From a virus, in the IMG/VR virus record IMGVR_UViG_3300034682_000176, positions 62,001-126,000 of that record: 64,000 nucleotides of DNA; one strand, written 5' to 3'. Below the pieces are notes generated by a model. It ran no database searches and was not told the DNA's origin. It saw nothing but the letters and a program-made list of their open reading frames with translations. This document shows positions 1-56,894 of the stretch, one piece after another. Numbering within the stretch: the stretch's first letter is position 1; every line of letters begins with the position of its first letter. A program made the position numbers and the translations under genes.

Positions 1-2
1 AC

Positions 3-164
3 ATCGTTAAGATTGACCGGTTTGTGAATGGATACCCGGTCTTCAAGAGCACCGTCACACCCCATAAAACTTGGGATGCCGTTCAGTGGACACCGTTCTT
101 TAAGAATGGCCACTTTGCATTTCAGGTTTGTTTCAATTCACCATCCCCTAACCCAGTGGGTTAA
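3..164 (+). CDS. C-terminal end of an unknown protein (5' cut by window edge)
   Basis: The window opens inside a reading frame that runs 53 codons to a TAA at 162-164. The visible tail is rich in Phe, Val, Trp and Pro (for example TWDAVQWTPFFKNGHFAFQ), which suggests a beta-rich ending. It lies 20 bases before the next gene on the same strand, so both are probably on one transcript. The start and most of the protein lie outside the window. I do not recognise the family. The call rests on frame and context only. Confidence 0.6.
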   Translation: MVKIDRFVNGYPVFKSTVTPHKTWDAVQWTPFFKNGHFAFQVCFNSPSPNPVG

Positions 165-184
165 GCACAAAAAGGAGTTTCACC

Positions 185-709
185 ATGAAGAAGTTTGATT
201 CGGAGCACGCCAGCAAAATCAAGAGCTTTGTCGTCAACGGTGTTGGTTACACGCACATGATCGACCTGACCAACGACTCGGTCTATCTGATCGACGAAGA
301 GATGAACATCTTGCTGGAGTTCACCAGTAACAGTGTCATTTTGGATCTGACCGCAGAGCCACAGCGTACGCTGGGGCGCTTTCAGCTTCGCCAAAACAAC
401 TGGTGGTTGATTGATGACATCCAGGGCACCGAAACCATGGGTACATCGTTCAACGATCCCGACGGCCTGCTCAAGGACGAAGTGGCGTTCAGCAAACAGT
501 GGCTTGCCAACAAAGACAAGTATGCTGCCCAAGTCCAACGAGACAAAATCAGTGCGGAACGTCGCCGATCGCCAGTCCTCGCCTTTGAGGAACCTCTGGT
601 GCGTATCAAAACAGCGCAAGACGAAGAACGTCTGCGTCTGGCACAGCAAAAGCGTGACCGCAAGGCCGCCAAGCGTGTCACCCCACAACCCCAACTCCCC
701 AATTCCTAA
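185..709 (+). CDS. Unknown protein sharing a domain with the next gene
   Basis: A 174-residue protein with a strong ribosome site (AAAAAGGAG, 8 bases before ATG). Residues about 15-85 form a beta-rich segment with the pattern NG..Y.H.iDl, then a Trp-containing strand (NNWWLIDD). This resembles residues about 160-235 of the gene at 718. The C-terminal third is highly charged and Arg/Lys/Gln-rich, likely helical, and ends in a basic Pro/Gln tail. The next gene starts 8 bases after the stop, so the two are translated from one message. I recognise no family. The partial homology suggests the two proteins act together or arose by duplication. Confidence 0.85.
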   Translation: MKKFDSEHASKIKSFVVNGVGYTHMIDLTNDSVYLIDEEMNILLEFTSNSVILDLTAEPQRTLGRFQLRQNNWWLIDDIQGTETMGTSFNDPDGLLKDEVAFSKQWLANKDKYAAQVQRDKISAERRRSPVLAFEEPLVRIKTAQDEERLRLAQQKRDRKAAKRVTPQPQLPNS

Positions 710-717
710 GGACCTCT

Positions 718-1518
718 GTGGAAAACATCCTGTTCCAAGAAAATCTGCGCAAGGCCTTGACCGCAGAAACCGAAAACCGTGTCACGACCGTGCGCGGTTA
801 CGGCTCGTACCTGTACAACTTGTTGAAGGTCAGTGTCAACAAGTCGGTCAATCCTGCTCAAGGACACTACGGTCCCACCCGTAATGAGATCGAGGGCAAA
901 CTGCCCAGCATCCTCATGGTGCTGTACAACAGTCTGGACACAGCGCTGGGTATACCTTCCTACATGGTCGATGATCCAGTTTTTGCCACTGTCATCGACA
1001 ACAGCGACCTGTCCATCGTCTTGAAAACCACTGGTAACCATTACCTGAAGTACCAGCCAGGTACTTTCCAGCTGACCATTGACGGTGAAGCGTTTACAGT
1101 CTGTAGCCACATCAAGACTGTCATCTTGCTGCGTGAACTCTACGAGCTGGGCCGTAAGATCCTGACCAACGAAACCAACGCTGACAAGTTGAATTTGCAC
1201 CGGCTGCGCATGAACCCCGTCACGGTGGGTGGGAAAACCTACTACCATGTCCTTGATGCTGTCACGCACCATTTGCAAATACATGACAGCGCAGGCCAGG
1301 TGGTGATGGTGTCCAACAACCTGATGGAAGTCTATCGAGTTGAAGGCAAAACCAACACCCTAATCGGTGTGTGGAAGATTGAAGACACCAAATGGGTTTT
1401 CCAGTTCCGCGATACCTTGGATGTGTTTGAAGGCTTGCCTGTCACACAAATCGACTCTCGGGTCTTGTCGGAGTTCAATTTGACCCCAATGCTGATCCAT
1501 CGCAAATTGATCGGCTAA
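718..1518 (+). CDS. Unknown 266-residue protein, GTG start
   Basis: The start is GTG at 718 with AAGGAC just upstream. An ATG start would discard conserved-looking N-terminal sequence. The N-terminal 150 residues look mixed alpha/beta. Residues about 160-235 repeat the domain seen at the N-terminus of the gene at 185 (the pattern Y-H-x-L-D, then D.....V..SN, then a strand ending in KWVFQF). A hairpin terminator follows at 1525. No catalytic motif is visible. It could be a structural or regulatory phage protein, and I cannot assign a role. Confidence 0.85.
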   Translation: MENILFQENLRKALTAETENRVTTVRGYGSYLYNLLKVSVNKSVNPAQGHYGPTRNEIEGKLPSILMVLYNSLDTALGIPSYMVDDPVFATVIDNSDLSIVLKTTGNHYLKYQPGTFQLTIDGEAFTVCSHIKTVILLRELYELGRKILTNETNADKLNLHRLRMNPVTVGGKTYYHVLDAVTHHLQIHDSAGQVVMVSNNLMEVYRVEGKTNTLIGVWKIEDTKWVFQFRDTLDVFEGLPVTQIDSRVLSEFNLTPMLIHRKLIG

Positions 1519-14721: not shown

Positions 14722-16647
14722 TTACGGCAGTGCTTTGATGTAGTACTCGTAGATGCCATCGTTCTTGGCTGTCCAGTCCGGCAGCTTGAACAAGGTTGGA
14801 TCAATGCCCGATTCTACAATCAAGGCAATGTAGTCGTTGGTACCTCCTCCGAACCCGGAGTAGTAGATAGTGCTTGTGATTGAGAAATACTTGATGGGAT
14901 TATTGACATCCCCATAACCCACCAACCCACCAATACAGTACACACGAGAGCTGGTCACAAACACAACTTGAGCACCGACACGGACCGGTAAAGATTGGGC
15001 GGATGTCCAGCTTCCCATTGTGCCGTCAGCATTGATGGTTGCACTGTGTACTTTTTGAGTGCCGGATGCATAAGAGACACTTCCGCCATTACCGGCACCT
15101 ATCCACGTTGATTGAAAACCAGTACCACCAATAGCATAAGCACGCTTTTGGGTCGAGACAATTCCAGCACTTTGATAACCGCTCAAACCAGTGACCGAGA
15201 ACCCCGGGTTATATGTAGACCAACCACCCAACGTCCCATCAGCATTAATGGCTGCGGAATAGCGAACATTGCCAAGAACGATGTGAACGTACGTTTTGGT
15301 TACCGAAATAATTGACAACACGGTGCTGACTGCCACCGGTACAGAACCGGCACTAACCCAGCTACCAATGGTGCCATCGGAGTTGATCGGAGCACGATAG
15401 ATAGAGCTTCGATAAGCGCTTCCATTGTACCCACCGATCATATAGACGTAGTTTTTGACTACAACCATAAACTGGCAGGAATTAGCAAATGGCAAATTGG
15501 TCGTTTTAGACCAAGCGCCAATGGTGCCATCTTCATTGATCTTGGCCATGTAGACCGAATTGAGGACAGTTTCTCCACCACTATCAGGCAAAAACGTCAT
15601 GGTGGACTGGCCGCCAAAAATGTATACGTAGCCCTTGGTCACCACCACCGATGCACTTGCTACACTAATTGGGAATGCGGAAGCCGCCGCCCAAGACCCC
15701 AACGTACCATTGGAGTTAATGGTCGTTGTATAGACTTTATTGATGGTTGCGGTATTTGAGGAGGTATCTGGACCTTGATAACCGCCGACCACATACACCC
15801 GGTTCTTGGTGACAAACGGGGTTGCGTGCGCAATAGTGATCGGGAAAGAACCAGCAGTCCCCATACCAAGACTGGTGGAGTTGTCCGTATCATTAAACGC
15901 ACCTTGTTGTGCCCAGGGTTGGCCAGCATAACCTGCCTCCCCGCCACTTCCGCCACTGGTGCTGTAAGTCAGACCAATGAGTGCAAACAGATCGGGATAC
16001 ACCGCACGCTCCACCCAAGCGCCGTTGGTGCGCAGATATTTGTCATGCGCCACGGTGTTAGGTTTGATGGCCAGGTCACCGACGTTTTGCGAACCAAACG
16101 TGCGGCTGGCAAACGAAGTCAAATAACCAAAGGTGGTGGCTTCCACTTCCGTGGTTGGAGCACGACTCAGCGTCAAGTTGTCGCTGAGTGCGGTGTTCTG
16201 GAAACCGACAGTGTTACGGATGTATGGGGTGGTGTTGGTAGTGTAACCATCCACACCGGTAGGGCGATTCTTGATCTCGCTGAAAGACAGCGATGGCAAG
16301 GCATTGTCTTGGGAGATGGGAAGGCCTGCGATGATCTGACCTTTGGCATTGACGGTGACACGGCTGTAGCTGCCGGATGCACCGACAGGACGCAAAACCA
16401 CCTGCGTCTTGTTATACAGACATACGTCACCATCGATGCCATCGGCAATCTTGTCTATCGGCACCACCCCACCTGTGATGTTTTCTACCGAAAGGTTGTA
16501 GGGGAAGTTATCGACGTAGTTCTTGGTGGCAGCTTCATTGGCAGTCATCGGCAAACGTGCCAGTGTCAAGTACCCCACCATGGTAAACCCTTCCAGCACC
16601 ACGCTTCGATCAAAAATGCCGGAGTTGGTAAACAACTTGATTTTCAT
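14722..16647 (-). CDS. Tail fibre / receptor-binding protein 1 with six-repeat propeller
   Basis: 641 residues from MKIKLF, the start shared by the paralogues; ATG 16653 two codons upstream is possible but sits against the AGAAAG site. The N-terminal 200 residues are the conserved fibre base (EAATK.YVD; Y-S-R-V-T-V-N-A-K-G). A collar-domain first half (YLRTNGAWVERAVYPDLFAL) is followed by six repeats of about 50 residues with V-T-K-x-x-V-Y-x-x-G-G and I-N-x-D-G-T-x-G-x-W, a Kelch-like beta-propeller. The collar second half (FKLPDW...YEYYIKALP) closes the protein. It shares a 76-base identical block with the next paralogue. Role: host recognition, inferred. Confidence 0.8.
   Translation of the reverse strand: MKIKLFTNSGIFDRSVVLEGFTMVGYLTLARLPMTANEAATKNYVDNFPYNLSVENITGGVVPIDKIADGIDGDVCLYNKTQVVLRPVGASGSYSRVTVNAKGQIIAGLPISQDNALPSLSFSEIKNRPTGVDGYTTNTTPYIRNTVGFQNTALSDNLTLSRAPTTEVEATTFGYLTSFASRTFGSQNVGDLAIKPNTVAHDKYLRTNGAWVERAVYPDLFALIGLTYSTSGGSGGEAGYAGQPWAQQGAFNDTDNSTSLGMGTAGSFPITIAHATPFVTKNRVYVVGGYQGPDTSSNTATINKVYTTTINSNGTLGSWAAASAFPISVASASVVVTKGYVYIFGGQSTMTFLPDSGGETVLNSVYMAKINEDGTIGAWSKTTNLPFANSCQFMVVVKNYVYMIGGYNGSAYRSSIYRAPINSDGTIGSWVSAGSVPVAVSTVLSIISVTKTYVHIVLGNVRYSAAINADGTLGGWSTYNPGFSVTGLSGYQSAGIVSTQKRAYAIGGTGFQSTWIGAGNGGSVSYASGTQKVHSATINADGTMGSWTSAQSLPVRVGAQVVFVTSSRVYCIGGLVGYGDVNNPIKYFSITSTIYYSGFGGGTNDYIALIVESGIDPTLFKLPDWTAKNDGIYEYYIKALP
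16061..16136 (-). repeat. 76-base identical block, copy 1
   Basis: Identical at every position to 18001-18076 in the neighbouring fibre gene, although sequences just outside it differ. It codes for the segment before the collar domain, which points to recent gene conversion. Confidence 0.85.
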
Positions 16648-39414: not shown

Positions 39415-39460
39415 ACTCCTGCACGATATCTTCGGGTATCGTGCAGGAGTGACTCTTTGT
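39415..39460 (+). terminator. Terminator after the frameshifted gene
   Basis: 14-bp stem (39415-39428 with 39437-39450) closed by a cTTCGg-type loop, then TGACTCTTTGTTTG. Confidence 0.75.
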
Positions 39461-39532: not shown

Positions 39533-41287
39533 GTGGCTGAGCAAAAGAAGATCATACGCAAAGAAATCCGCTTTGCTATCCATCTGCCTAAGAAAGACTA
39601 CCGTGAAGACGCGCACTACATCAAAGAGCACATCTACTTCGAGGACGGCACCAGTACCTGGCATACGTTCCTGACGGAAAACTACCAACGCCCGATCTGG
39701 GTGACCAAGCCATCGGCTCGTAACCACAAAGACAAGAAAGAGTTTGAGTACCGTACCAACCTGATTGAGCAAAAATGCACCCAGTCGGACGTCAACCGCA
39801 CAGTAGCGGGCCTGTTGGAAGTGCCGCACTTGGCCAACCGCCCTATTGAGCTGCGCTCATCCCCTTACGTGTATGGGTATGACCAGACTTCCACGTCGAT
39901 CATCAAGCTGCAAAGCCTGATGAAGAACAACTTTGTGCAAAGCCCTTACACCGTGGCGGCATCGGACAGTGAAACCGATATTGACACACGGGAAGTGTTG
40001 ATGGTCTCAATTGCCTTCCAAGGCAAGACCTACACTTGTATTTTGAAGCGGTTCTTGGAAAACAAGGGCATTTACGACTTTGACAAGCAAGTGCGTGCCG
40101 CCATTGACAAGTACCTGCCGCAGTACCAAGGCAAGTTGCAATCTACCTTCCGCATCTTTGATAAGGAAGCAGATTTGTTGGCAGATCTGTTCCGGGTCGC
40201 CAACGAGTGGGGTCCAGACTGGCTGGCCTACTGGAACATGAACTTCGACATTAAGCGCTTCGTGGAGCGCGCTAAGGCTTTGGGGGTTCGTGATTCCGAC
40301 ATCTTTGCTGACACCTCGGTACCACGCAAATACCGTTTCAGTCGTTACAAGGAAGGCATCAGCTCCAAGGAAAAGGGTGGCAAGTCCAAACCCATCAACC
40401 CTTCGCTGCAGTGGCACAGCTTGATCTCGACATCGAGCTTTTACGTCATCGATGCGATGTGTGTGTACCGCCAGCTGCGCATGGCCAAACAGGAAGAGCC
40501 CAGCTACTCCCTGGATTGGATCTTGCAAAAAGAGTTGGGTAGCCGCAAGCTGAAGTTTGAAGAAGCTGCAGCGTACCAAGGCGAGAAGTGGCACCGCTTC
40601 ATGCAGCAAAACTATCCCATTGAGTACATCGTCTACCACTTGTACGATTGCTTGGGGATGTTGGAGCTTGATGCCAAGCTGCGTGACCTGTCGCACTCGG
40701 TGCCTTCGTTTGCCTCCATGACCGACTTTGGGAAGTTCAACTCCAACCCGAAGAAGATTGTGGATGCTTTGTTCTTGTTTGGCCTGGAGCGTGGACAGGT
40801 GGTTGGCACCACCATGCCTATCCGAGACAAGGATGAAGAGGTGGCCGAGCAAGAGTCATTGATCACCGACGAGATGCTTGAAGACGGTGAGACCGATGAC
40901 GAAGAAGAGGAGGAAAGCGACAACCCGGATGACTACAAGGGTCTTGACCTGCGTGGTTGGATTCAGCTGTTGCCGCAGAACTTCTTGATTCGTGATGGTC
41001 TGAACTGTCTGGCCGACTTCCCGGAAGTGACCACCAGCATCCGTGGTATGGTGGCGGACTTGGATGCGACTTCTGCGTACCCCACGGCAACCTTGGTGGC
41101 CAACGTCAGCAAACGCACTTGTATCAACGAACCTATCCGTATCGACGGCTTGACCGAAGAGACATTCCGCGAACAAAACCTGAGCGTTTGTTTGGGTGGT
41201 GTGAATTCGCTGGAGTATTTCAACGTAGTCTTCCAAATGCCTGCGCTGGACTCCCCAGAGATGGAAGCCTTCCTAGAGACTTTCTAA
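39533..41287 (+). CDS. N-terminal part of a split family-B DNA polymerase (exonuclease to motif A)
   Basis: 584 residues from GTG 39533 (AAAGGA upstream). The 3'-5' exonuclease motifs are present: Exo I SDSETD (Asp145, Glu147), Exo II WNMNFDI (Asp239), Exo III YHLYD (Tyr368, Asp372). An acidic linker (about 430-470) precedes palm motif A, DLDATSAYP (Asp511 to Pro517). Only 67 residues follow. Motif B (K...NS.YG) and motif C (DTD) are absent from the protein and not seen elsewhere in the window. A terminator follows 6 bases after the stop, so this is a clean gene end. Related split gene 43 occurs in some Aeromonas T4-like phages. The polymerase half is presumably elsewhere. Confidence 0.8.
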   Translation: MAEQKKIIRKEIRFAIHLPKKDYREDAHYIKEHIYFEDGTSTWHTFLTENYQRPIWVTKPSARNHKDKKEFEYRTNLIEQKCTQSDVNRTVAGLLEVPHLANRPIELRSSPYVYGYDQTSTSIIKLQSLMKNNFVQSPYTVAASDSETDIDTREVLMVSIAFQGKTYTCILKRFLENKGIYDFDKQVRAAIDKYLPQYQGKLQSTFRIFDKEADLLADLFRVANEWGPDWLAYWNMNFDIKRFVERAKALGVRDSDIFADTSVPRKYRFSRYKEGISSKEKGGKSKPINPSLQWHSLISTSSFYVIDAMCVYRQLRMAKQEEPSYSLDWILQKELGSRKLKFEEAAAYQGEKWHRFMQQNYPIEYIVYHLYDCLGMLELDAKLRDLSHSVPSFASMTDFGKFNSNPKKIVDALFLFGLERGQVVGTTMPIRDKDEEVAEQESLITDEMLEDGETDDEEEEESDNPDDYKGLDLRGWIQLLPQNFLIRDGLNCLADFPEVTTSIRGMVADLDATSAYPTATLVANVSKRTCINEPIRIDGLTEETFREQNLSVCLGGVNSLEYFNVVFQMPALDSPEMEAFLETF

Positions 41288-41292
41288 GCCTG

Positions 41293-41334
41293 CCTACATC
41301 ACTGTCCTTGCGGACAGTGATGTAGGTCTTTCCC
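41293..41334 (+). terminator. Terminator after the polymerase N-terminal gene
   Basis: 15-bp perfect stem (41293-41307 with 41312-41326) with loop TTGC, then TCTTTCCCC. Confidence 0.8.
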
Positions 41335-41383: not shown

Positions 41384-42706
41384 ATGTTTCTTAGCCTGGA
41401 AACCATTCAGTACCAGCACAAAGACCGCTTTGAGAAAGACCTCAAGGCCCTGCTGGGTTCGATCTACGACAGTGTGAAATCTAAGGAGTACAAGACCACC
41501 AACGAGATCATCAGCAAGCACCCTGCGGTCAAGAAGATCGAAGAGCTGGTGATGGATCGCTTGGGATTGAACATTGAGATCACCAAGGATTTGTACGTGA
41601 TCTCTCCTGCTGCTGTGATCCCGTTCTTTGGGGATTACATGCGCGGTTATGGAACCATGGGCTTTTACCAGACGTTTGGCTCTGGTGTGAAGTTCGGTGA
41701 CATCTTGAAGAAGATCGAAGCGATCGACAAAGCCAAGCTGGCAGCCATGAAGAAAGCCCACAACAAAACAGGGTTTGTGGACTTGAAGCATGCGCGGGTG
41801 GGTGGATACTTGAGCGATCTGCGCCACTACGTGCTGTTTGACTTTGTCTGGATGTACAAGCACGACATCACGCCTGATGAACAAGCCGGCATCATGACCC
41901 ACGAGCTGGGTCATGCGTTTGACGGCTTGGAAGAGCACTACCGCTTGCAAACCACCAACCGTGCCATCTTTGACATCTTGGTGGATCTGCGCGAAGGCAA
42001 CGAAGACAAAGCGTTGTACCGCTACCGCCACACCTTCACCGAAAAAGAGTTCCGCCACGCACAGCTGAACACCAGTGCTGAGCGCCAAGACTTTTGTTCG
42101 GAGTTGGCCCTGCGGTACTTGGACACCATCAAAGGCCAGTACCTGGATGACAAGTACGACGAAACCAACTTCGAGAACATGGCTGACACCTTTGCCGCAC
42201 GTTTTGGCATGGGTAAAGACGTAGTCTCTGGGTTGCAGAAGTTGCACCTGGCCGGCGGTGCAGTGCTACCACGCAACGGCTTTGGTTACTCGATCGTGAC
42301 CTTGGTCCAAGTGTTGACAGCTGCCACGGTCTTGCTGGTGGCTCCGCCTTTTGGTGCATTGGCATACGTGGGGGTGTCGGTGCTGCTCATGGGTAAACGC
42401 AATGCCGACTTGACCTATGATCTGCCGATCGATCGCTACCAGCGTATCAAGAACACGATGGTCAATGCGATCAAGAACACCAAGTTACCCACAGATGTCA
42501 TCAAAGACCTGTTGGATCAAATCAGCTACATCGACACCCTGATCGAAGGGTTCATGAGCAACGATTTTGACTTGGGGGATGCAATCGCTAACTTGCTGTC
42601 GCCATCGAGCCGCCGGGCGGTCTACTACATCAACCTCCAGCAAGATCTGGAGCGCAACCTCAACAACGAGTTGTTTGTGAAGGCAGCCCAGCTGCGCACC
42701 CTGTAA
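41384..42706 (+). CDS. Membrane-associated zinc metallopeptidase (HELGH)
   Basis: 440 residues. HELGH at 173-177 gives two zinc ligands (His173, His177) and the catalytic Glu174. A likely third ligand is Glu264 in NFENMADTFAARFG, the usual E-x-x-x-D spacing of gluzincin-type enzymes. Residues about 303-337 hold two hydrophobic segments (IVTLVQVLTAATVLLVAPP; LAYVGVSVLLMG), so it may sit at the membrane, though burial in a protein core cannot be excluded. N- and C-terminal parts are helical. Possible substrates include host or virion proteins; none is indicated. There is no clear ribosome site. Single-gene unit. Confidence 0.7.
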   Translation: MFLSLETIQYQHKDRFEKDLKALLGSIYDSVKSKEYKTTNEIISKHPAVKKIEELVMDRLGLNIEITKDLYVISPAAVIPFFGDYMRGYGTMGFYQTFGSGVKFGDILKKIEAIDKAKLAAMKKAHNKTGFVDLKHARVGGYLSDLRHYVLFDFVWMYKHDITPDEQAGIMTHELGHAFDGLEEHYRLQTTNRAIFDILVDLREGNEDKALYRYRHTFTEKEFRHAQLNTSAERQDFCSELALRYLDTIKGQYLDDKYDETNFENMADTFAARFGMGKDVVSGLQKLHLAGGAVLPRNGFGYSIVTLVQVLTAATVLLVAPPFGALAYVGVSVLLMGKRNADLTYDLPIDRYQRIKNTMVNAIKNTKLPTDVIKDLLDQISYIDTLIEGFMSNDFDLGDAIANLLSPSSRRAVYYINLQQDLERNLNNELFVKAAQLRTL

Positions 42707-54590: not shown

Positions 54591-54622
54591 TCCATCAGCC
54601 TGAACAAGGCTAATTGATGAAC

Positions 54623-54661
54623 CTAGAAGAGACCCGGGCCTTGTGCTCGGGTCTCTTCTAG
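54623..54661 (+). terminator. Terminator between the paired internal-protein genes
   Basis: 14-bp perfect stem (54623-54636 with 54648-54661), then GCGTCTTTGC. It may limit read-through from the first gene to the second. Confidence 0.7.
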
Positions 54662-54723
54662 CGTCTTTGCCGCTGTCTGACCTATTTTGTGAGTTTATCT
54701 ATCAACCCTGAAAGGATGCCGTC

Positions 54724-55950
54724 ATGGCTAAACTGTTTCCCTCCGTCGAAAGTGACGATGTGATCAACCAAGTGGAAGAGCTGGAAGTGTCGCCTGAAGA
54801 AGGTGAAGCTGCAGCCGTTCAAGCTGAAGCTGAAGTCGAGTCCGACGGCGTGCTGGAAACTGCTGAAGCCGTCGATGCTGGCGCTGATGCTTCGGCCGAG
54901 CTGGAACAAGTGGAAACCTTGGTCGAAGGTGCGGGTGAAGAAGGTCTGACCCCTGTGGCTGCTGAAGCCATCCGTGTGGCCATCTCGGTCATCGCCTCCA
55001 AGGTCGGCGCCAACCCCCAAGCGCTGTACCAACGCTACGCCTCGGAGAACTTCGTCGGCGCTGGTGCAAGCCCTGCCAACACCGCCCACGCTCTGGAAGG
55101 TGTGCAGGAGTTCCTGAAGGACCTGTGGAAGAAGATCAAGGCTGCCCTGACACAGATGTCGGCCAAGCTCAAGAGCTTCTGGGCCAAACACCTGTCCAAC
55201 TCGGGCCGCATGGTCAACGCCATCGCTTCCATGAAGAACCGTGTCAAATCTTCCTCGGGCAAGATCAGCGGCAAGGCATACCTGGACAAGGCACCTGCGG
55301 CCGTGGCCAGCTACTACAAGACCACCAAGGACATCAACGCCACGGTGGTGCGCGAGTCGATCTTCAACCCAGCCATCATTCAAACTTACAGCAAAAACGC
55401 CACGGGCTTTGCTGATCGCATTGCTTCGCTGGCGAAGACTGGTATGTCGGACAGCGCCAAGGCGGCGCAAGCGTTCGATGCTGCGATCAAGAACATCCAG
55501 AGCGGCAGCCTTGAGCTGCCGGTGGTCGGTGGTGAAAAGGTGGTGGTCGAAATCGAACCTGATCATGAAGAAGGTTCGATCAAGACCACGTTCACCCGTG
55601 AACCCAACGGCGATGTGGAAGAGTCTCCCAGCATGGCTGTGGCGGACAAGGCTACTTTGCTGTCGCTGCTGACCGACGCAGAAACGCTGATCAAGGCTGT
55701 GGTCAAACACAAGTCCGAATCCGAGAAGCTGAGCCAAAAGTTCAACGAAGCTTTGGTCGGTGTGGAAAAGCTGTTGGGTGACGCCAACTTGCAAGGTACT
55801 GTGGCATCCAACGTCCGCAAGTGCATGCGTCTGGTCTACAAGAGCGCCGCAACCGACGCCAAGGTCGAGACCTTGTTCATCAACGAGTCCATCCGCTGCG
55901 CTAAGGCCGTGCTGACCTACAGCGCTGCTTGCTTGAAGCAGTACAGCTAA
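54724..55950 (+). CDS. Internal-head-type virion protein B, paralogue of A
   Basis: 408 residues; AAAGGATGCCGTC precedes the ATG. Begins MAKLFPSVESDD, then an acidic tract and the same SPEEGE, ADASAELEQVE, GLTPVAAEAIR and ALEGVQEFLKDLWKKIKAAL elements as the preceding protein. After residue about 200 the two diverge. Less extreme codon bias than A, so probably less abundant. A tandem duplication is clear. The helix around 127-165 could be membrane- or DNA-active after ejection into the host, as proposed for internal head proteins; that is inference. Confidence 0.65.
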   Translation: MAKLFPSVESDDVINQVEELEVSPEEGEAAAVQAEAEVESDGVLETAEAVDAGADASAELEQVETLVEGAGEEGLTPVAAEAIRVAISVIASKVGANPQALYQRYASENFVGAGASPANTAHALEGVQEFLKDLWKKIKAALTQMSAKLKSFWAKHLSNSGRMVNAIASMKNRVKSSSGKISGKAYLDKAPAAVASYYKTTKDINATVVRESIFNPAIIQTYSKNATGFADRIASLAKTGMSDSAKAAQAFDAAIKNIQSGSLELPVVGGEKVVVEIEPDHEEGSIKTTFTREPNGDVEESPSMAVADKATLLSLLTDAETLIKAVVKHKSESEKLSQKFNEALVGVEKLLGDANLQGTVASNVRKCMRLVYKSAATDAKVETLFINESIRCAKAVLTYSAACLKQYS

Positions 55951-55971
55951 TCCCTAGCCTATAATGGCTTA

Positions 55972-56007
55972 GACACCACCAGCAGGCTTCGGCTTGCTGG
56001 TGGTGTC
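55972..56007 (+). terminator. Terminator with TTCG tetraloop
   Basis: 16-bp stem (55972-55987 with 55992-56007, one wobble pair) closed by TTCG. Confidence 0.75.
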
Positions 56008-56031
56008 TGTCTGCGTTTTGAAACCAATTCG

Positions 56032-56053
56032 ATTACATATATACCACATGACA
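56032..56053 (+). promoter_or_regulatory. TTACATATATAC-type promoter-like element
   Basis: ATTACATATATACC, then ACATGACAT, 77-98 bases before the ATG at 56130. A 6-bp leader hairpin (ACAGAC/GTCTGT, about 56074-56093) lies between them. Confidence 0.55.
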
Positions 56054-56129
56054 TAAACCTCTTGTAATTTGTAACAGACTCTTATTTGTCTGTGGTTACA
56101 AGACCGGTTCATCAAAAAGGAGTTTCACC

Positions 56130-56894
56130 ATGATCCCACGTTCTATCGCTCTGGTTCTGCGCAACGACACTGAAGCTGAAACTATTGTGTTGCAAACCTA
56201 CGGTGTGGCTGAAGATGTCACAACAGTTCAACTGCCGTTTGACAAAGAACAGTTTCAGACCAAGATGCATGAAGTCGGTGAAAAGCTGCGTATGCATCTG
56301 CACGGTATTGCTGTGCAACTGTCGGAAGACACCAAGGCTGCGGGTCTGCTGGAGACCTTTGTGACCTATATGGGAACATTGGAAGTTGACCACAATGCTA
56401 AAGTGCCTGATGAATTCCGCGGCACTCTGCGCAAGCGTGTTGCACGCCTGGCATCGCTGTTGCGCAAAAACGCTACCGACCCTGCTTCTTTGGTCAAGGG
56501 CTACTTGATCGGAACTGAAAACGGTCTGGTGCTGAACCTGTGGGTTCACACCGAAGAGTTGGTCTTGCTCAACGAAGTGGTGGAGCCAATCAACGTACAA
56601 GACACCGTTGACGCAAAAGCTCTGCTGGAGCAAGCGGTCACCACTGTGGCTGATCTGGCACCGTTCACTGAAGAGCTGACCATGGGTCAAGAACTCGGCA
56701 AAAACGTTGAGGTGACTTTGATCCACCCAGCACAAAAACCCATCATCTTGAACAAACCAACTGACCCTGGTTTGGACGGTGATGAGTTCAACACTCCTAT
56801 TCAAATGGGATTGACTTACGATCCCAACTTGAATCCGAAGTCCGCGCGCAGTGTCACAACAGCTTTGGCACAGCGCTTTACCCGTCACTTTTGA
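56130..56894 (+). CDS. Unknown 254-residue protein
   Basis: AAAAAGGAG and spacing identical to the gene at 185. Mixed alpha/beta, with an N-terminal beta-strand run (SIALVLRNDTEAETIVLQTY) and helical middle. No Cys pairs or metal sites. It forms a one-gene unit with an early-type promoter element and a strong terminator, separate from the virion run on both sides. Unlike the internal-type proteins it lacks the MAKL start. No family recognised. Confidence 0.75.
   Translation: MIPRSIALVLRNDTEAETIVLQTYGVAEDVTTVQLPFDKEQFQTKMHEVGEKLRMHLHGIAVQLSEDTKAAGLLETFVTYMGTLEVDHNAKVPDEFRGTLRKRVARLASLLRKNATDPASLVKGYLIGTENGLVLNLWVHTEELVLLNEVVEPINVQDTVDAKALLEQAVTTVADLAPFTEELTMGQELGKNVEVTLIHPAQKPIILNKPTDPGLDGDEFNTPIQMGLTYDPNLNPKSARSVTTALAQRFTRHF

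What the first reader, a model, noticed from the sequence alone, without database searches (positions are those of the whole stretch)
39533..41287. DNA polymerase split cleanly between motifs A and B
All three exonuclease motifs and palm motif A are present and intact, then the protein ends 67 residues later, followed within 6 bases by a strong terminator. Motifs B and C are not found in the window. Clean ends argue for a functional two-subunit enzyme and not a decayed gene. Split gene 43 is known in Aeromonas T4-like phages, where homing endonuclease insertion is linked to the split; here no endonuclease is next to the break.
Basis: partly seen in the sequence, partly recalled or inferred. 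Interest (0 to 1): 0.75.

Follow-up and report, generated by a model that had tools for sequence, protein, structure and literature searches.

The report
Split DNA polymerase of phiKZ-like phage
This giant phage makes its DNA-copying enzyme as two separate proteins from genes 45,000 bases apart, each holding one of the two catalytic aspartates; this is an ancient, already reported trait of the whole phiKZ-like phage group, not a new or broken gene.

Summary
Window 39533-41287 (+) encodes a 584-aa family B DNA polymerase front half: three exonuclease motifs and palm motif A, then an intact stop. The missing half is in the same 224.8-kb genome, 5.3 kb outside the window, at contig 54606-56750 (-): 714 aa with motif B (KIYANSLSG) and motif C (SDTDS). 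No PolA, PolIII-alpha or second PolB was found. Its comparison is not: the break is not the Aeromonas T4-like gene-43 break, which lies at the fingertip. It is the split polymerase of phiKZ-like jumbo phages, already reported ("split subunit DNA polymerase", SPN3US gp18/gp44, first in phage OBP). I add that the split is lineage-wide: none of about 240 related loci, from Pseudomonas to Bacillus and Staphylococcus phages, is fused. Motif A's aspartate is invariant in 51/51 front halves; motif B and C residues in 45/45 back halves. The two predicted folds cover RB69 polymerase residues 1-430 and 447-894. The metal-binding aspartates therefore sit on different chains, correcting a published description of the front half as a mere standalone exonuclease. 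Novelty: new member of a known kind.

The parts
39533..41287 (+). N-terminal polymerase subunit, 584 aa: N-terminal domain, 3'-5' exonuclease domain, palm motif A (front half of a family B DNA polymerase). Its partner, the C-terminal subunit (714 aa), lies outside the window at contig 54606-56750 (-)
39965..39973 (+). Exo I, D145-S-E147
   Evidence: D and E in 51/51 relatives
40232..40249 (+). Exo II, W234-N-M-N-F-D239
   Evidence: N 51/51, D 50/51
40634..40648 (+). Exo III, Y368-x3-D372
   Evidence: 51/51
41057..41083 (+). palm motif A, D509-L-D511-ATSAYP517 (D511 = RB69 D411)
   Evidence: D509, D511, Y516, P517 in 51/51; aligned to RB69 410-430
41292..41327 (+). 16-bp hairpin 5 nt after the stop codon, weak T-tract
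39415..39450 (+). 16-bp hairpin upstream, likely terminator of the preceding gene

Best explanation
The ORF is the N-terminal subunit of the two-subunit replicative family B DNA polymerase of a phiKZ-like jumbo phage. The C-terminal subunit (fingers, motif B, a long helical insert, motif C, thumb) is made from a separate gene 44.8 kb away on the opposite strand. The two proteins associate non-covalently into one polymerase. The N-subunit gives the N-terminal and proofreading exonuclease domains plus the palm strand with the first metal-binding Asp (D511). The C-subunit gives the second metal-binding Asp (in DTDS) and the dNTP-binding Arg/Lys of the fingers. Neither chain should polymerise alone. 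Shown: both genes, intact motifs, complementary fold coverage, co-inheritance, lineage-wide conservation of the split. Inferred: physical assembly, and the need of the N-subunit's motif A region for the partner in order to fold.
For: The partner gene is in the same genome (PF20286 E=5e-190, single copy). No PolA or PolIII-alpha was found. Catalytic residues are invariant: motif A in 51/51 N-halves; K148, N152, G156, D402, D404 and fingers R118/K122 in 45/45 C-halves. The C-halves tested carry no motif A pattern. The N-half model aligns to RB69 1..430 (Z 27) and the C-half model (a 58%-identical relative) to RB69 447..894 (Z 14). Alone, the N-half folds well to about residue 425 but residues 502-535, with motif A, have pLDDT near 30-40. 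N and C distance matrices agree across 13 genomes (Mantel r 0.96, 0 of 20,000 permutations). No fusion was seen in the relatives examined, although ordinary single-chain PolB was recognised in the same scan. Literature.
Against: No structure of the complex was predicted (the tool folds single chains) and no biochemistry is held. Low pLDDT of the motif A region can also reflect prediction failure. The C-half folded was that of a relative, not this phage's own. The genome record is of unstated completeness, so an undetected further polymerase cannot be fully excluded.
Confidence: 0.95

Rival explanations
1. The N-half is only a standalone proofreading exonuclease, and the C-half (PF20286) is the complete polymerase, as described for 'group 1' jumbo phages by Iyer et al. 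2021.
For: The exonuclease domain folds on its own with pLDDT above 90. Iyer et al. describe the polymerase as lacking a fused exonuclease, which they say is encoded elsewhere.
Against: The exonuclease protein carries motif A, with D509, D511, Y516 and P517 invariant in 51/51. The C-halves tested have no motif A pattern and align to RB69 only from residue 447 on. AR9 gp131 is itself annotated as 'exonuclease and partial catalytic domain'.
Confidence: 0.03
2. The halves are joined into one polypeptide by a split intein (protein trans-splicing).
For: Split inteins occur in other phage PolB genes (Aes123; MIJ3).
Against: No intein family matches either half. The ends of both halves align with conserved polymerase-family sequence. 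The fold of the C-half starts directly in polymerase elements.
Confidence: 0.015
3. A decayed or truncated polymerase gene, or an assembly or frameshift artefact.
For: The protein lacks the back half in the window.
Against: The same break is found in every uninterrupted relative; 51 aligned N-halves end 65-141 aa after motif A. A separate contig record has an N-half 100% identical to this one (L005). All catalytic residues are intact in both halves.
Confidence: 0.005

Closest known systems
Split-subunit DNA polymerase of phiKZ-related phages (OBP gp99 + gp55; SPN3US gp44 + gp18; C-half PHIKZ050; PF20286 divDNApol + phrog_3011)
   Same: Same two protein families, same break between motif A and the fingers, halves tens of kb apart and usually on opposite strands (27 kb SPN3US, 35 kb OBP, 45 kb here)
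   Different: Only sequence divergence: 24-38% identity to isolate proteins, 58-60% to the nearest metagenomic relative
AR9 gp131/gp151 and phiR1-37 g170/g167+g164
   Same: Same split at the equivalent place
   Different: Halves closer (15 kb; 1.7 kb divergent). The C-half keeps the motif B Tyr. The phiR1-37 C-half is further interrupted by a group I intron, not by a third split
Split gene 43 (43A/43B) of T4-like Aeromonas and Acinetobacter phages
   Same: Family B polymerase split between motif A and motif B
   Different: The break is further downstream: 43A includes the first long fingers helix. The 43A and 43B genes are adjacent, or a few kb apart with a homing endonuclease nearby
Two-subunit archaeal PolB (Methanothermobacter PolBI, Nanoarchaeum PolB)
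   Same: Functional family B polymerase made of two polypeptides (own knowledge)
   Different: Break further towards the C-terminus, between motifs B and C as recalled (not tested here)

Membership tests
phiKZ-related split DNA polymerase | N-half of the exonuclease + motif A family (phrog_3011) | tested here: met
   E=6.1e-148; single place in the genome
phiKZ-related split DNA polymerase | C-half of the divergent PolB family PF20286 in the same genome | tested here: met
   E=1.7e-188, residues 8-702; single copy
phiKZ-related split DNA polymerase | Motif A only on the N-half, motifs B and C only on the C-half | tested here: met
phiKZ-related split DNA polymerase | Non-adjacent genes | tested here: met
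   44,783 bp apart, opposite strands
phiKZ-related split DNA polymerase | Two proteins form one active enzyme | not testable with these tools
   needs co-expression and activity assay
Chimalliviridae (nucleus-forming phages) | Chimallin gene | tested here: inconclusive
   No match to PF25677 or to an Agricanvirus chimallin; but PF25677 also misses the annotated OBP nuclear shell protein fragment, so absence is not shown
Aeromonas/Acinetobacter T4-like split gp43 | Break after the first fingers helix | tested here: not met
   This N-half ends before the fingers helices
Aeromonas/Acinetobacter T4-like split gp43 | Homing endonuclease associated with the split | tested here: not met
   No endonuclease family in the flanking ORFs tested
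Split-intein PolB | Intein fragments at the break | tested here: not met
   No intein model matched either half

The most novel reading that the evidence does not exclude
The two chains are separately regulated, so that assembly of the active site (one catalytic Asp per chain) is a control point of jumbo-phage replication, with the free N-subunit acting as an exonuclease. The uniform Tyr-to-Ser change in motif B (RB69 Y567 position) would mean base selection works differently in this enzyme.
Probability: 0.12. Interest if true: 0.55.

Novelty: new member of a known kind. Interest (0 to 1): 0.25.

Why it matters
It settles what the lone polymerase front half is. It also shows that the phiKZ-type polymerase active site must be built from two polypeptides, across a split found in Gram-negative- and Gram-positive-infecting jumbo phages, so annotations that call one half the polymerase and the other an exonuclease are incomplete. 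The invariant residues listed here make the intersubunit active site directly testable by mutagenesis.

Tried and rejected
2) Scanning viral contigs with this phage's C-half alone found nothing; an alignment of six C-halves did. 4) A joint model of both chains was not possible (single chains only; fusing them would be a changed sequence). 5) Homing endonuclease at the break: rejected. Introns in relatives sit at motif A (own residue 509) or residue 427, not at the break. 6) A three-piece polymerase in phiR1-37: rejected, since g167 and g164 flank a group I intron. 7) The original OBP paper (DOI 10.1128/JVI.06330-11, from memory) is not held; its claim is taken from later papers that cite it. 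8) Chimallin in this genome: searched, inconclusive.

Full report
Observation. The ORF at 39533-41287 (+) starts with GTG behind an AAAGGA-like site and reads 584 codons. Pfam sees only a sub-threshold exonuclease domain (PF03104, 21.8 bits against 23), because the protein is divergent; PHROGs names it DNA polymerase at E=6e-148. Exo I-III and motif A are all present, and the protein ends 67 residues after the motif A proline. The hairpin right after the stop is strong (-29.2 kcal/mol, z -7.7) but its T-tract is weak, and the scan does not list it as a terminator.

The missing half. The window is bases 62001-126000 of a 224,810-base virus record. PF00136 rings once in the whole record, at 56190-56498 (-). 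The open frame there gives a 714-aa protein from the ATG at contig 56750 down to 54606. It matches PF20286 'Divergent Family B DNA polymerase' at 1.7e-188 and holds motif B (KIYANSLSGAFG) and motif C (LSDTDS). Each half is single copy. No PolA or PolIII-alpha was found.

Relatives. tblastn against phage records finds 268 records covering at least 80% of the N-half and 264 covering at least 80% of the C-half: the phiKZ-like jumbo phages of Pseudomonas, Erwinia, Salmonella, Vibrio, Serratia, Klebsiella, Aeromonas and Burkholderia, with weaker C-half matches in Bacillus, Staphylococcus and Yersinia phages. In SPN3US, OBP and FLC9 the halves lie tens of kb apart, in AR9 15 kb apart and in phiR1-37 1.7 kb apart. 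From viral contigs I took 80 N loci and 80 C loci of the phiKZ-like branch. No locus has both halves within 4 kb. Every uninterrupted N-half ends shortly after motif A, except L052, which carries an extension without motifs B or C. In the AR9-like branch 80 more C loci have open frames of at most 753 aa, and where an N-half is near it is divergently transcribed; the same scan recognised ordinary single-chain PolB genes, so a fusion would have been seen. Loci include near-duplicates, so these are counts of loci, not of independent lineages.

Constraint. In 51 aligned N-halves, D145, E147, N235, Y368, D372, D509, D511, Y516 and P517 are invariant. In 45 aligned C-halves, K148, N152, G156, D402, T403, D404, S405 and the fingers residues R118 and K122 are invariant. 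At 30-40% identity this excludes decay. Distances between genomes agree for the two halves (13 genomes, Mantel r 0.96, none of 20,000 permutations; 0.94 without AR9), as expected of partners inherited together. One of the 13 pairs uses the N-half of RAY and the C-half of its congener Simmy50.

Structure. The N-half model (mean pLDDT 81.8) is confident to about residue 425; residues 502-535, with motif A, are not. It aligns to RB69 gp43 residues 1 to about 430 (Z 27.0, 358 residues, 3.6 A). The C-half model of the nearest fetched relative (pLDDT 90.5) aligns to RB69 447-894 (Z 14.3, 382 residues, 5.7 A), with an extra multi-helix stretch between motifs B and C. The two halves tile one polymerase, with the junction in the palm between motif A and the fingers. 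That the motif A segment folds only with its partner is an inference.

Mechanism. In RB69 and other family B enzymes, catalysis needs the Asp of motif A and the Asp of motif C to hold two metal ions, and fingers residues to hold the dNTP (established knowledge). Here these lie on different chains. The simplest mechanism is a non-covalent heterodimer. The alternative in Iyer et al. 2021, a complete polymerase plus a standalone exonuclease, does not explain the invariant motif A on the exonuclease protein nor its absence from the C-halves tested. Trans-splicing by a split intein has no support in either sequence.

What is known. [quoted passage not shown] AR9 gp131 is annotated as exonuclease plus partial catalytic domain. 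The Aeromonas and Acinetobacter T4-like gene 43 split is a different event: 43A of Aes012 and Lazarus runs on through the first fingers helix.

Introns. In relatives, the N-half gene is interrupted at own residue 509, inside motif A (L039, L059, L069, L072, L085, L090, L098 and Goslar), or at residue 427 (L070, L077, L078, L097); group I introns were found by Rfam in seven of the eleven loci scanned (L039, L059, L070, L072, L077, L078, L097). In Goslar a NUMOD1/HNH ORF follows the first exon and the motif A exon lies downstream. None of these sites is the split point, so current introns do not mark the origin of the split.

Verdict.

Noticed in passing
C-half, contig 54606-56750 (-); L104 residue 155: The motif B tyrosine equivalent to RB69 Y567 is serine in 45/45 phiKZ-like C-halves, but Tyr in AR9, phiR1-37 and Staphylococcus phages. 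RB69 Y567 governs base selection (own knowledge).
   Followed up: partly
window 41057-41065: Motif A has an extra invariant Asp two residues before the catalytic one (DxD; 51/51, also in AR9 and phiR1-37) that T4-like enzymes lack.
   Followed up: partly
L039, L059, L069, L072, L085, L090, L098, L070, L077, L078, L097: N-half gene interrupted at motif A (own residue 509) or at residue 427 in relatives; group I introns found in seven of these loci.
   Followed up: yes
L014:2414-6100 (Goslar): Annotated DNA polymerase gp068 (499 aa) stops at motif A because of an insertion with a NUMOD1/HNH ORF; the motif A exon is unannotated downstream.
   Followed up: yes
L016:14850-17173 (phiR1-37): g167 and g164, annotated as two DNA polymerases, flank a group I intron (15611-16010) and look like exons of one C-half.
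   Followed up: yes
L052:3983-6793: N-half with a 445-residue tail after the motif A Asp, without motif B or C; function unknown.
   Followed up: no
window 41384-42706: 440-aa protein with a HELGH metalloprotease-like motif and no known family beyond phrog_2767 (unknown function).
   Followed up: no
L002:14568-15884: Fragment of a multisubunit RNA polymerase (phrog_2962), as in other phiKZ-like phages.
   Followed up: no
L005: A separate 41-kb viral contig carries an N-half 100% identical to this one.
   Followed up: no
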